From Haematococcus lacustris (Eukaryota > Chlorophyta > Chlorophyceae > Chlamydomonadales > Haematococcaceae), in NCBI GenBank assembly GCA_030144725.1, contig JASKMD010000022.1, positions 1,324,996 to 1,388,995 of the forward strand: a stretch of 64,000 nt of DNA. Direction: 5' to 3'. The position numbers were made by a program, and so were the translations under genes. The notes under the pieces were generated by a model that saw only the letters and a list, made by a program, of their open reading frames with translations, made no database searches and was not told where the DNA came from. Positions 3,400 through 12,300 of the stretch are shown piece after piece (the stretch's first letter is position 1; each line of letters starts with the position of its first letter).

Positions 3400-6300
3400 A
3401 CCGGGCTGGCTGAGTTTGCCGTTGAGTTCAGCGCACAGAACCAGGCAGCGGCCCAGAAGGACATTGACAGCCAGTTAGCGGGGCTTGCGGTGGAGGGCAT
3501 TGCGCAGACATTCAGGGAGAGCTTCTGGATGGTGCTGGCGCTCAAGGTGCAGGTGAGCCGCAGGGCACAGGGCAGGGGAGCGGTCATCCTGCTGCAGGTG
3601 AGCAGCCACAGCGTGCTGTGCCCAAGAAGAGGCTTGCCTCCTCCAGCCTGGGGCTCTGTACACCCCACTCCACCTTTAACGTGGTACCTGGTGCACTGCA
3701 TTCACCAACTCAGCTCATCTCTAAACTCTTCTCCCTTCCCTCCTCCTCCCCTGTCCTTCCCTCCTCTCCCTTCCCCTTCCCCCTACACGCTGCCAAGCAC
3801 TGCTGTGTCCAGGTGATGGCGCAGCCCAACGTGCCCGCCATGCTCAAGGTGTTCAACAGCTCCGCGGATGTGCTGATGGCCCAGGTGCAGGCCAGGTGCA
3901 GGGCGACACCAGCAGCAGGGGGCGGCACAGGCAGCTGCACAGCCACCCACTGTCTGCTCACTGGCGCCCGGGAAGCTGAGGACAGGGGAGGACAGCACAC
4001 AGAGCAAGCAGTGTAGCTATAAGTCCGTACTTGGCGCGGTAACCTCGCCAATGTCTTGTCCCTTGTCTGGACTGTGTCATTGTCATGACCATGTCTTGCT
4101 CCTGGATGGATCCACGGGCCAGGAGGGGTGTGGACGGAGCGAGGCAGGGGACGGAGCCAAGCTCACGCCACGCTGCCTGCCTGCTTGCTGGGCCCAATGG
4201 GGGCAAGGCCAGCGCCCACCCTATGCCCAGCCTGCTGCCCCTGCCACCCCTCCCACTCCCGCTACCCCTGCGGCTGCCGTTGCTGCAGGCGCCCAGCGGG
4301 CTGCCCATTGTGCTGATGCTGCTGCCCATGGGCCGCCTGACAGCCATCTACCCGGACTACCCGGGCGCAGCGCAGATACTGGGCCTGGACGTCTTCACTG
4401 GGCCCGCCAGCATAGACCCGCGGTAGGGACAGCGAGGCCAGGGGCAGGGCAGGGCAGGGCAGGGCAGGGCAGGGCAGGGCCTGATTCAGACCATACCACT
4501 CTACTCCCTCATCACCCCCTGCTGTTGCGTATGCCTGATGATCCATACGAGGTAGCCGGGTATGGTTGTAGCCATGTTCAGTGTTGCATCCCACTCGAGC
4601 CCAGCAGCTACAGTACAGCTCAGCAGCCTTGACAGTCCATCCAGTCGTGAAGGCCCCTGGCCTGAGCTCGGCCGCATCAATCCTCCCCCGCACAGCCCAC
4701 TCCTCCTGCCACCACCTCCCAGCCCCACCCCTGTCTTGATGACAGAGCTTGAGACTCCCCTAATGTGACCCACCCCTTATCCCCCGTAGAGCACACTGGA
4801 CCCATACCATCACCAGCAGCATTGCTGCCGCCCCTGCTGCCACCACTGCTGCTGCTACGTGGCACACACAGCTGCCACCACTCCTTTCAAGTCCAATGGC
4901 AGTGCTCGACAGCAGCCAGTCTGTGTTTAGGCAGGCATGGCAGGCGCAGCGGCTGGTGGGAGCAGCAGAGCACTGCCAGGGGCACACTCCCACCACCACC
5001 ACCACCACCGCCACCACCATCCCTGCCACGACAGCAGCAGCAGCAGCAGCAGCAGCAGCACTGCCCCTGGTATATACACGCCTGAGCAGCAGCGTGAGCA
5101 GCAGCAACCTGCGCCTCAGGCCTGCCTCAGCCACAGTGGCCTGGCTAGGAGCTGGACAGAGCAGCAGATTGCCCTGTTGCCCACACTCAGCCCAACCCAC
5201 GACACCCTGCACCCTCCACCACCACCACCCTGGCCAGGTGCTAGACAGAGCAGTAGGTGCTAGACTGCAGGTCCCCTGTATCCCCTGTGTCCCCTGTGTG
5301 AAGCGCTAGGAACAGCAGCGCGGGGTGCGGCCTGCTGCCACTGACAGGACCTCCAGCAGGAGGGTTAGGGGAGGGGTGGGTAGGGGCGGGTAAGGGTGCG
5401 GGTGCGGGCCACCCTAAGGGTTAAAGCCAACCCAGGCGGAGGGTTAGGGTTAGGGTTAGGGTTAGGGTTAGGGTTAGGGTTAGGGTTGGGCTACCAGCAG
5501 GAGGAGGCGGAGGAGGCGTCCAGGTGGGCCTGAAGCAGCCCAGTGCCAGCACCGGCCTGAGGGCAGAGACACCGCTAGCGATGGCTAGGGGCAGCAGCCT
5601 GCTGCAGCTCTGCCATCACCACTGCCTGTGCCAGAGGTTCAGTATGCCCTCCTGCATTAAACTGTCATGGGCTGCCCCGCCTGCCCACCACCCTACTCTG
5701 CAACCAGCCTGAGATTGGATTGTATCCCAAGCCCCTGATGGCACCTGCAGCCATGCCGCTCCACAGCTCCTTACCTGCATGAGCTTTGGGCGTGACGCAG
5801 GGCAAGGGCAGGGGCAGGGGCGATGGCAGGGGTGAGGGCAGGGGCGATGGCAGGGGTAAGAGCAGGGGTACGAGGCCGCCTGGCTGCCTGCAGGTGGATG
5901 GCCATGGACTTCCAGCGCCCAGCCCTGGAGTTTTACTTCCGGCCAGGGGGCGGTGTCAACGCCAACATGGCAGTGCCTATCACTGTTGCCAACGTGAGGC
6001 AGCGCACTCACGGCCCACTGCCTGCCTGCCTGCCTGCCTGCCTGCCTGCCTGCCTGCCTGCCTGCCTGCCTGCCTGCCTGCCTGCCTGCCTGCCTGCCTG
6101 CCTGCCTGCCTGCCTGCCTGCCTGCCTGCCTGCCTGCCTGCCTGCCTGCCTGCCTGCCTGCCTGCCTGCCTGCCTGCCTGCCTGCCTGCCTGCCTGCCTG
6201 CCTGCCTGCCTGCCTGCCTGCCTGCCTGCCTGCCTGCCTGCCTGCCTGCCTGCCTGCCTGCCTGCCTGCCTGCCTGCCTGCCTGCCTGCCTGCCTGCCTG

Positions 6301-9300: not shown

Positions 9301-12300
9301 CCTGCCTGCCTGCCTGCCTGCCTGCCTGCCTGCCTGCCTGCCTGCCTGCCTGCCTGCCTGCCTGCCTGCCTGCCTGCCTGCCTGCCTGCCTGCCTGCCTG
9401 CCTGCCTGCCTGCCTGCCTGCCTGCCTGCCTGCCTGCCTGCCTGCCTGCCTGCCTGCCTGCCTGCCTGCCTGCCTGCCTGCCTGCCTGCCTGCCTGCCTG
9501 CCTGCCTGCCTGCCTGCCTGCCTGCCTGCCTGCCTGCCTGCCTGCCTGCCTGCCTGCCTGCCTGCCTGCCTGCCTGCCTGCCTGCCTGCCTGCCTGCCTG
9601 CCTGCCTGCCTGCCTGCCTGCCTGCCTGCCTGCCTGCCTGCCTGCCTGCCTGCCTGCCTGCCTGCCTGCCTGCCTGCCTGCCTGCCTGCCTGCCTGCCTG
9701 CCTGCCTGCCTGCCTGCCTGCCTGCCTGCCTGCCTGCCTGCCTGCCTGCCTGCCTGCCTGCCTGCCTGCCTGCCTGCCTGCCTGCCTGCCTGCCTGCCTG
9801 CCTGCCTGCCTGCCTGCCTGCCTGCCTGCCTGCCTGCCTGCCTGCCTGCCTGCCTGCCTGCCTGCCTGCCTGCCTGCCTGCCTGCCTGCCTGCCTGCCTG
9901 CCTGCCTGCCTGCCTGCCTGCCTGCCTGCCTGCCTGCCTGCCTGCCTGCCTGCCTGCCTGCCTGCCTGCCTGCCTGCCTGCCTGCCTGCCTGCCTGCCTG
10001 CCTGCCTGCCTGCCTGCCTGCCTGCCTGCCTGCCTGCCTGCCTGCCTGCCTGCCTGCCTGCCTGCCTGCCTGCCTGCCTGCCTGCCTGCCTGCCTGCCTG
10101 CCTGCCTGCCTGCCTGCCTGCCTGCCTGCCTGCCTGCCTGCCTGCCTGCCTGCCTGCCTGCCTGCCTGCCTGCCTGCCTGCCTGCCTGCCTGCCTGCCTG
10201 CCTGCCTGCCTGCCTGCCTGCCTGCCTGCCTGCCTGCCTGCCTGCCTGCCTGCCTGCCTGTGCGCCCAGCTGGCTCCAAGGGCGTGTGGGGCAGTGGCCC
10301 AGGCTAGCCAACACCCCTGCAGCTACACCCTGCCACTGCTGCCGCCACCAGGGGGTAGGGGGTGGGGGGCCTAGGGACAGGGTAGTCAGCCCTGGCATGA
10401 GGTGCGGCATGGAGGGCTTCCCCTACCCCTACCCCTGATTTCTTGACCCGTGCCCCTTACCCCTTCACCCCCGTGCCCCTCCCCCCCCTGCTGCTGTGCC
10501 CTGCAGGTGGCACCTGATGACCTGTTCGGGATGAGTAGGTGAGCAGCAGCGGCCGTTGGCTGGCCTGCTGTTGACCTCCCAGCCAGATCTGTTGTCAGGC
10601 GGCCGTCGTGTGGCCTGGACAGCCCTGGCAGCCCAGCAGCCAGGGAGCCTGGCGGCCCAGCAGACTAGCAGCCCGGCAGCCAGAGAGCCTGTGGCAAGGA
10701 GGGTGAGGGCAGCTGCGCTGCGGTCAAGGTGTGCCAGAGGCCGGCGGGGCGGTGTGGTGCGGTGTGCAGGGACGTGACCTTCTGCCCCTCAGACCGAGGC
10801 TGCTACAATGCCACAGGGCGGGTGCGCTTCTGGGGCCTCATCATCGCAGTGGTCACCTTGGACGACCTGTTCTCAGGTAAGTGGCTCCTAATCAGGCAGG
10901 CGGCAGGGAGGCAGGGAAACAGGGCGGCAGGGCAGCCCATTTTCCTGATCTTGTCTCGCCCCTCCCCCTGCCCCGCTGCCACACTGACTGTGTCGGCCAC
11001 GTCCGCCACACCTCACCTCACCTGCCTTGCCCCCTCCACCCCTCCACCCCTCCACCCCTTCAGACCCCCCCCCCTGGCCCCCCTGCCCTGGCTGGTCGCA
11101 GGCCACGCCTCCCACCTGCGTGTGTTGAGCCAGGAGGGGCTGGAGTACCAGGTGCTGGTGCCTGCCAGCGTGGTCAGCGCCACCGGCCTGCCCAGCACGG
11201 ACCTGGTGGTGGCGCACAGCCCCCGGGCGCAGGTCGGCGCGGAGCAGCGGGCAGACGTGGTCACCGCCTCAGCCACGTGCGTTGCAGGCAGAGGGCTGCT
11301 GCTGGCAGAGGGGGTGCGGACTGCTGCGCCCCTCACAGCCTGTGTATGTCAGTCTGTGGGCCTGTGGGCCTGTGGGGCACAGCTGCTTGGCTGTGTGCGT
11401 CCTGGCTGACCTGGAGCTCTTGCCGCTACCAGCTGCCCTCCCCTGCCTCACCTGGCAGACCTGCTGAGGCCCTCACAGCCTGTGTGTTCGGGGTCTGTGT
11501 GTGCCTGTGAGAGCACTTTGTAGGCTACAGCTGAACTTGTCAGTGTGTGTCCTCGCTGACCCGATGCTCTAGATGGCTCAGGAGCCTGAGTCCAGGGCCC
11601 ATGCAGTTAGGGGTAGGGGTAGGGTTGCCCGGTGCTTGCATTGGGAAGAGGGCGAGGGCTGTGGACGCAAGCTGGTGTGGTGAAGGGGGGTGGCTGCGTT
11701 GGCCATTCTGAGTTCAAACCTGATCAGGGGGCCATGCAGTGAGGGGCAAACAGGACACGCTGGCCACCAGCGGCCTATGTCACCACCAGCGCAGCACTGC
11801 CTCACCTGGCCTGGCTTCTGTTGCCGGGCTGTTGGCTGCAGGCTGCCCACTGGTGATGCCTGGAGCCTTAGAGTGTGGCGGCCCAGGGGCAACACGCCGC
11901 GCTGGCGCACCCCCCTGCTAGCCGTCATGCCGCTGGTCTGCCTTATCCTGGCCGGTAAGCACCACTGCCTGCCATCCTTGTGGGACGCTTAGAGCCGCCG
12001 CTGGGGTCCTTGACCTCACCGCACACTGACCCTCCGCTCCCACCACTGCTCGCTCATCCAGTGGAATGCACTGCCGCGGGCATCATGGCACGCACTTGCA
12101 TGGCTCTTGTGCTTCAGCTGGAGGACTCGTCAAATGTGCGACATGGTGTGTGTCACACATCCCCGAGCACATTGTCAGCACCAGGGACGCCATCTCGCCC
12201 CACCGCGATGTGATTGCCGTGGCACCCGCAGCGGAGGTGTTTGTAGTTCTTGTCAGCGGCTTCCGGCACGGTCAGCTGGTGCGCGCCATGCTTCCGCCAC

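What the first reader, a model, noticed from the sequence alone, without database searches (positions are those of the whole stretch)
6021..10260. A 1,060-copy CCTG array in an intron, like the myotonic dystrophy type 2 mutation
Seen directly: 4,240 bp of perfect CCTG in one orientation, inside the intron 5994-10506 of a nucleotide cyclase gene and transcribed as CCUG. The known parallel is the intronic CCTG expansion of human CNBP, which is pathogenic at 75 or more units, forms RNA hairpins and sequesters MBNL proteins. An alga carrying such an array in a receptor gene would be a natural case of tolerated CCUG RNA. The lack of any interruption suggests very recent expansion or homogenisation.
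Basis: partly seen in the sequence, partly recalled or inferred. Interest (0 to 1): 0.9.

Follow-up and report, generated by a model that had tools for sequence, protein, structure and literature searches.

The report
Giant CCTG repeat in algal intron
A gene of the red-pigment alga Haematococcus carries, in what looks like a normal intron, over a thousand perfect copies of the four-letter repeat that causes a human muscle disease, and the same repeat turns up at long lengths elsewhere in this genome.

Summary
The array is real in the sequence: window 6018-10260, 4,243 bp, 1,060.75 CTGC units without one mismatch. Chromosome lengths identify the source as the HiFi assembly of Haematococcus pluvialis SAG 192.80, Chr22. 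A hand-built 15-exon, 644-aa model of a membrane nucleotide cyclase places the array in intron 5994-10506, read as CCUG; without the array that intron is an ordinary 270 bp. The DM2 comparison holds for motif, intronic position, strand and length. It is untested for transcription, RNA foci, protein sequestration and harm. The main correction: this is no solitary oddity. The genome holds 156,825 perfect (CCTG)6 frames against 86 for the reversed motif, and 73,316 perfect (CCTG)50 frames against none. Some arrays sit in copies of a dispersed repeat; this one shares no flank with the ten loci compared. Most likely it is a tolerated slippage- or repair-driven expansion, spliced out with its intron. 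If retained, the intron's open frame predicts a roughly 1,400-residue LPAC tail. A second allele, which would show length polymorphism, could not be sought because the genome-search machine stayed busy.

The parts
6018..10260 (+). Perfect CTGC/CCTG array, 4,243 bp, 1,060.75 units
5994..10506 (+). Host intron (GTGAGG...CTGCAG), 4,513 bp; 270 bp without the array
5894..5993 (+). Exon 5, upstream of the array, ends ...AVPITVAN, next intron in phase 0
10507..10538 (+). Exon 6, downstream of the array, VAPDDLFGMS(R)
2955..3041 (+). First exon of the model, with first hydrophobic segment; true 5' end of gene not determined (first Met of the model at 2973)
3400..3552 (+). Exon 2 of model
3813..3884 (+). 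Exon 3 of model
4289..4422 (+). Exon 4 of model
10770..10876 (+). Exon 7 of model
11102..11276 (+). Exon 8 of model
11842..11954 (+). Exon 9, start of second hydrophobic segment
12232..12371 (+). Exon 10, end of second hydrophobic segment and start of cyclase part
12539..12655 (+). Exon 11, cyclase domain
12980..13136 (+). Exon 12, cyclase domain
13243..13370 (+). Exon 13, cyclase domain
13706..14076 (+). Exon 14
14223..14271 (+). Exon 15 with stop codon
5823..10307 (+). Open frame running through exon 5 and the array (poly-LPAC if the intron is retained), stop at 10305-10307
5980..10410 (-). Antisense open frame through the array (poly-QAGR) beginning with ATG; no evidence of use

Best explanation
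A tolerated, intronic CCTG microsatellite expansion. Shown: a perfect 1,060-unit CCTG array in an otherwise ordinary 270 bp intron of a modelled membrane nucleotide cyclase gene in Haematococcus pluvialis, in a genome where long CCTG arrays are frequent on both strands. Inferred: a short CCTG seed in intron DNA grew by replication slippage and/or break repair and gene conversion, which also keep it pure. Transcripts carry about 4.2 kb of CCUG, but the donor (24 nt before the array) and the pyrimidine-rich stretch and acceptor (within 246 nt after it) are intact, so the intron is usually removed and degraded. The array has no function of its own. Its effect, if any, is slower or failed splicing, giving a truncated receptor end with a long LPAC tail.
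For: Perfect array and coordinates; chance excluded. 15-exon model, 14 of 14 introns GT...CAG, frame kept throughout, 644 aa plus stop. Cyclase domain 8.4e-44; the best solved-structure alignment crosses four exon joins, and none of its three short gaps falls at a join. The other 13 introns of the model are 106-1,471 bp; this one is 270 bp without the array. Genome-wide: (CCTG)6 frames 80,386 + 76,439 against 45 + 41 for the reversed motif; (CCTG)50 frames 39,513 + 33,803 against 0 + 0. Other arrays read: Chr10 2,219 bp, eight on Chr1 of 203-235 bp. The source assembly used HiFi reads, mean 16.6 kb, 82.9x (PMC10400597), so spanning reads are expected.
Against: No RNA evidence and no reads. The exon model was built by hand choosing sites that keep frame, and the 5993/10507 join was not confirmed by any homologue (protein search switched off; no relative confirmed in prokaryote genomes; own-genome search unanswered). 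The expansion mechanism is inferred, and simple slippage does not explain why CCTG is so strongly preferred over GTCC. The comparison of flanks covers ten loci only.
Confidence: 0.72

Rival explanations
1. A CCUG-RNA system that is physiologically active: the repeat RNA binds proteins, causes regulated intron retention or makes LPAC protein, so that cyclase output depends on array length.
For: Sense-strand CCUG; array open in all frames, and a retained transcript would give a 1,619-residue product counted from 2955; the first 500 nt of the intron fold slightly better than shuffles (z -2.30, 1 of 100 shuffles as good).
Against: No expression data. (CCUG)25 alone is not more stable than shuffles (z -0.98). 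The genome carries such arrays on both strands in many places, which argues against a gene-specific device.
Confidence: 0.1
2. Assembly or consensus artefact of length: a shorter or interrupted array was inflated or smoothed.
For: Complete purity over 4.2 kb is extreme; another long array in the same assembly carries 1-2 base irregularities; reads were not available.
Against: HiFi reads of 16.6 kb mean length assembled with hifiasm (PMC10400597) should span 4.2 kb with unique flanks; the array is not next to either N gap.
Confidence: 0.1
3. The array was delivered by a mobile or dispersed repeat that carries CCTG.
For: Three of eight Chr1 arrays (L057-L059) sit in copies of one repeat, 96.0-97.3% identical over about 1.56-1.59 kb.
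Against: The 1 kb on each side of this array shows no match (E 1e-5) to the eight Chr1 loci, L009 or L016 with the low-complexity filter on; with it off, 68 matches of at most 75 bp; the eight longest of these were looked at. Only those ten loci were compared.
Confidence: 0.05
4. The array is coding (LPAC repeat protein), not intronic.
For: No stop in any frame for 4.2 kb; the frame of the upstream exon runs into it.
Against: Openness follows from the motif itself; GT-AG sites bracket it and restore frame to the next exon; a stop follows at 10305-10307, 44 bp after the array.
Confidence: 0.03

Closest known systems
CCTG expansion in intron 1 of human CNBP (myotonic dystrophy type 2)
   Same: Same motif, intronic, CCTG on the sense strand, length in the disease range; same predicted LPAC and QAGR peptides (PMC13225714 passages).
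   Different: Different gene, kingdom and intron; no evidence here of RNA foci, sequestration, RAN translation or harm. Here long CCTG also occurs at many other places in the genome. The human tract is part of a TG/TCTG/CCTG motif (start of abstract of PMC8255792); here both edges are abrupt.
Intronic tandem repeats of Chlamydomonas reinhardtii and Volvox carteri
   Same: These green algae have their highest tandem-repeat density in introns, with more repeats near intron ends (PMC3887541 passages).
   Different: The top intron motif reported there is GT/AC; the passages read mention no kilobase CCTG arrays.
Haematococcus lacustris repeat-rich genome (PMC7617258)
   Same: 47.3% repeats; the tetranucleotide SSRs found in coding sequence (two genes) average 778 bp.
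   Different: In the sections and passages read, SSRs were counted in coding sequences only; no word beginning with CCTG, CTGC or CAGG occurs in its main text.
Intronic triplet expansions in FXN (human) and IIL1 (Arabidopsis) - recalled; the paper searches for them failed
   Same: Large repeat inside an intron.
   Different: GAA/TTC motif with reduced expression (recalled); nothing of that kind was tested here.

Membership tests
DM2-type intronic CCTG expansion | Tandem CCTG of 75 or more units | tested here: met
   1,060.75 units
DM2-type intronic CCTG expansion | Located in an intron with CCTG on the gene's sense strand | tested here: met
   Gene model; splicing itself not observed
DM2-type intronic CCTG expansion | Located in CNBP intron 1 | tested here: not met
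   Host gene is a class III nucleotide cyclase
DM2-type intronic CCTG expansion | CCUG RNA foci and MBNL sequestration | not testable with these tools
   No RNA or protein data; presence of an MBNL-like protein was not searched
DM2-type intronic CCTG expansion | Length instability, somatic mosaicism | not tested
   Needs reads or a second allele; the own-genome flank search did not complete (first, last)
DM2-type intronic CCTG expansion | RAN translation into LPAC and QAGR | not testable with these tools
   Frames are open; no peptide data
Class III nucleotide cyclase (host gene) | Guanylate_cyc domain above Pfam cut-off | tested here: met
   149.8 bits against cut-off 21.9; aligned to solved cyclases
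CHASE-domain receptor cyclase (host gene; the label is recalled) | CHASE domain between two membrane segments | tested here: not met
   No Pfam family up to E 10 for the 295-residue region, though a divergent domain could be missed; two hydrophobic segments are present

The most novel reading that the evidence does not exclude
Haematococcus pluvialis is a CCTG-expanded species: kilobase-scale intronic CCTG/CAGG arrays are transcribed in many genes as a normal state, and the alga has evolved ways (splicing, RNA turnover, or lack of MBNL-like targets) to live with repeat RNA that is toxic in animals.
Probability: 0.25. Interest if true: 0.8.

Novelty: new member of a known kind. Interest (0 to 1): 0.55.

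Why it matters
CCTG expansions are known mainly as a human disease mutation and from models made to copy it (recalled, and the listing). A culturable alga with a natural, pure 1,060-unit array inside a gene, in a genome that holds at least 627 kb of perfect CCTG (156,825 frames, each adding four bases), would allow tests of how such arrays grow, stay pure and are tolerated. Such introns would also be expected to trouble short-read assembly and gene prediction in this commercial species.

Tried and rejected
Chance composition: rejected. Coding repeat: judged unlikely (stop 44 bp after the array, frame restored by splicing). Rfam families at gathering threshold and tRNAs in the window: none. Relatives of the cyclase's outer region in prokaryote genomes: 37 pattern stretches, none confirmed. 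Pfam on the outer region: none up to E 10; a 75-residue piece gave only a sub-threshold EGF_Mua-3 match, E 0.064. (CCTG)10 in viral contigs as a yardstick: 36 stretches, at most three 40-mers in one stretch; no eukaryote yardstick genome was at hand. Folding as RNA: (CCUG)25 no better than shuffles (z -0.98), the CAGG strand much better (z -10.14). Folding as DNA: CCTG worse than its shuffles (z +3.45), CAGG better (z -4.77). A systematic sample of 120 regions of 10 kb was planned and not obtained. A first gene model that ended at 14077 was replaced by one with a 15th exon. A guess that the exon beside the dispersed Chr1 array is a synaptotagmin-like domain found no Pfam match and was dropped.
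Full report
WHAT IS THERE. The run of CTGC units is 6018-10260, 4,243 bp, with no mismatch or indel. The rest of the window reaches 19 bp at most in this motif and 200 simulated 60 kb sequences reach 17 bp. Both edges are abrupt...GGCCCA before and TGCGCC... after.

WHERE IT COMES FROM. The window is G000:C110:1324996-1388995 of a 307.9 Mb, 597-contig assembly. Of the six contigs over 1 Mb whose length I saw, five equal chromosome lengths printed for Haematococcus pluvialis SAG 192.80 (C1 Chr1 4,970,000; C2 Chr10 8,246,294; C40 Chr14 9,426,245; C100 Chr21 5,182,000; C110 Chr22 1,515,144); the sixth, C90 6,505,635, is near but not equal to Chr20 6,515,030 (Table 2 of PMC10400597, parts 1 and 2 of 3 read). 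The published total is 316.0 Mb. That assembly used PacBio HiFi reads (mean 16.6 kb, 82.9x), hifiasm and 3D-DNA. The two 500-N gaps of the window fit Hi-C scaffolding (that 3D-DNA writes 500 N is recalled). So single reads should span the array, but I did not see reads.

THE HOST GENE. I built by hand a + strand model of 15 exons from 2955 to 14271. All 14 introns are GT...CAG, frame is kept, and the product of 644 aa ends at a stop; its 5' end is not fixed. Because I chose sites that keep frame, this is support and not proof. The cyclase part matches Pfam Guanylate_cyc at 8.4e-44 and aligns to solved cyclases such as the natriuretic peptide receptor over residues from five exons; the best alignment has three short gaps, none at the four exon joins. 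Two hydrophobic stretches (residues 17-35 and 314-332) bracket an outer region of about 280 aa that matches no Pfam family even at E 10, so I do not call it CHASE. The array intron is 4,513 bp; without the array it is 270 bp, against 106-1,471 bp for the other 13. The array starts 24 nt into the intron and ends 246 nt before the next exon. No homologue tests the join 5993/10507: the protein database was switched off, prokaryote genomes gave no confirmed relative, and the own-genome search with the downstream flank did not complete.

NOT A SINGLE ODDITY. Perfect (CCTG)6 frames in the whole assembly number 80,386 forward and 76,439 reverse; the same letters in reversed order give 45 and 41. Perfect (CCTG)50 frames number 39,513 and 33,803 against 0 and 0. 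Each frame adds four bases, so at least 627 kb, 0.2% of the assembly, is perfect CCTG. By arithmetic this array gives 1,011 of the 73,316 long frames. The capped listing appears complete for Chr1 (it passes on to the next contig): eight runs of at least 200 bp, 49 frames. I fetched all eight and they measure 203-235 bp. If Chr1 is typical, most long frames must come from longer arrays elsewhere; one on Chr10 is 2,219 bp in seven perfect runs separated by one or two extra bases. I could not count arrays by length because the next frame-count search did not complete.

HOW ARRAYS SPREAD. Three of the eight Chr1 arrays lie in copies of one dispersed repeat, 96.0-97.3% identical over about 1.56-1.59 kb. 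The other five share no flank of over 60 bp with each other or with these; two are preceded by CCAG units and two followed by CCCG units. A Chr1 minisatellite (L009) alternates degenerate CTGC blocks with CAG-rich blocks. So there seem to be at least two routes: local growth from CCTG-like seeds and copying inside dispersed repeats. The 1 kb on each side of this window's array matches none of these ten loci (the eight, L009, L016) with the low-complexity filter on, which fits local growth, on a small comparison.

HOW IT MOST LIKELY WORKS. Shown: sequence, position in the modelled intron, strand, genome-wide load. Inferred: local expansion by slippage or repair; transcription as CCUG; removal with the intron. 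Open in all six frames, the array would give poly-LPAC on the sense and poly-QAGR on the antisense strand, the same peptides described in DM2 (PMC13225714 passages); a retained intron would give a 1,619-residue product counted from 2955. Folding gives little support for a special structure of short CCUG runs (z -0.98 for 25 units; z -2.30 for the first 500 nt of the intron).

WHAT IS KNOWN. DM2 alleles have 75 to over 11,000 CCTG units (abstract of PMC9462847). Green-algal introns are rich in tandem repeats (PMC3887541 passages). The other Haematococcus genome paper, in the sections and passages I read, examined SSRs in coding sequence only, and no word beginning with CCTG, CTGC or CAGG occurs in its main text (PMC7617258, sections 3.1 and 3.5 and passages). 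A paper search for Haematococcus, simple sequence repeat and CCTG (any two; 362 papers, ten listed) listed no title on CCTG arrays in this alga; later searches failed. So I found no report of this load, on a limited search.

VERDICT. The DM2 parallel is good as anatomy and untested as biology. The more interesting fact is the genome-wide CCTG load. It is a new member of a known kind, intronic microsatellite expansion, at unusual length and purity.

Noticed in passing
window 45570-46680: A second kilobase array: 222 copies of CCCGC with a phase slip at 46034/46035.
   Followed up: no
window 31310-32909: 1.6 kb array of a 12-base unit built on CAGGGG/CAGGGC, about 133 copies, 95% matches.
   Followed up: no
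window 5440-5487: Eight perfect AGGGTT units, the telomere motif reported for this alga (AACCCT, PMC7617258), inside the intron before the array intron.
   Followed up: no
window 39933-40661: CCCTCA array of 37.5 units ends at 40156, with five bases before a 500-N gap: the contig may break at the repeat.
   Followed up: no
window 58567-62028, minus strand: Uninterrupted 1,153-codon frame with reverse transcriptase, RNase H and integrase domains: an LTR-type retrotransposon polymerase. Five other long frames of the window scanned in the same call matched no Pfam family.
   Followed up: partly
L053-L060 (Chr1): The eight Chr1 CCTG runs of 200 bp or more are only 203-235 bp, while Chr10 and Chr22 carry kilobase arrays; the apparent ceiling is unexplained.
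   Followed up: partly
L057, L058, L059: Dispersed repeat of at least 1.5 kb, three copies on Chr1, 96.0-97.3% identical, each carrying a 227-235 bp CCTG array.
   Followed up: partly
L016 2250-2850 and 6640-7160: The Chr10 array has an AGG-type array and a CCCCA-type array as neighbours, judged by eye from the listed frames.
   Followed up: no
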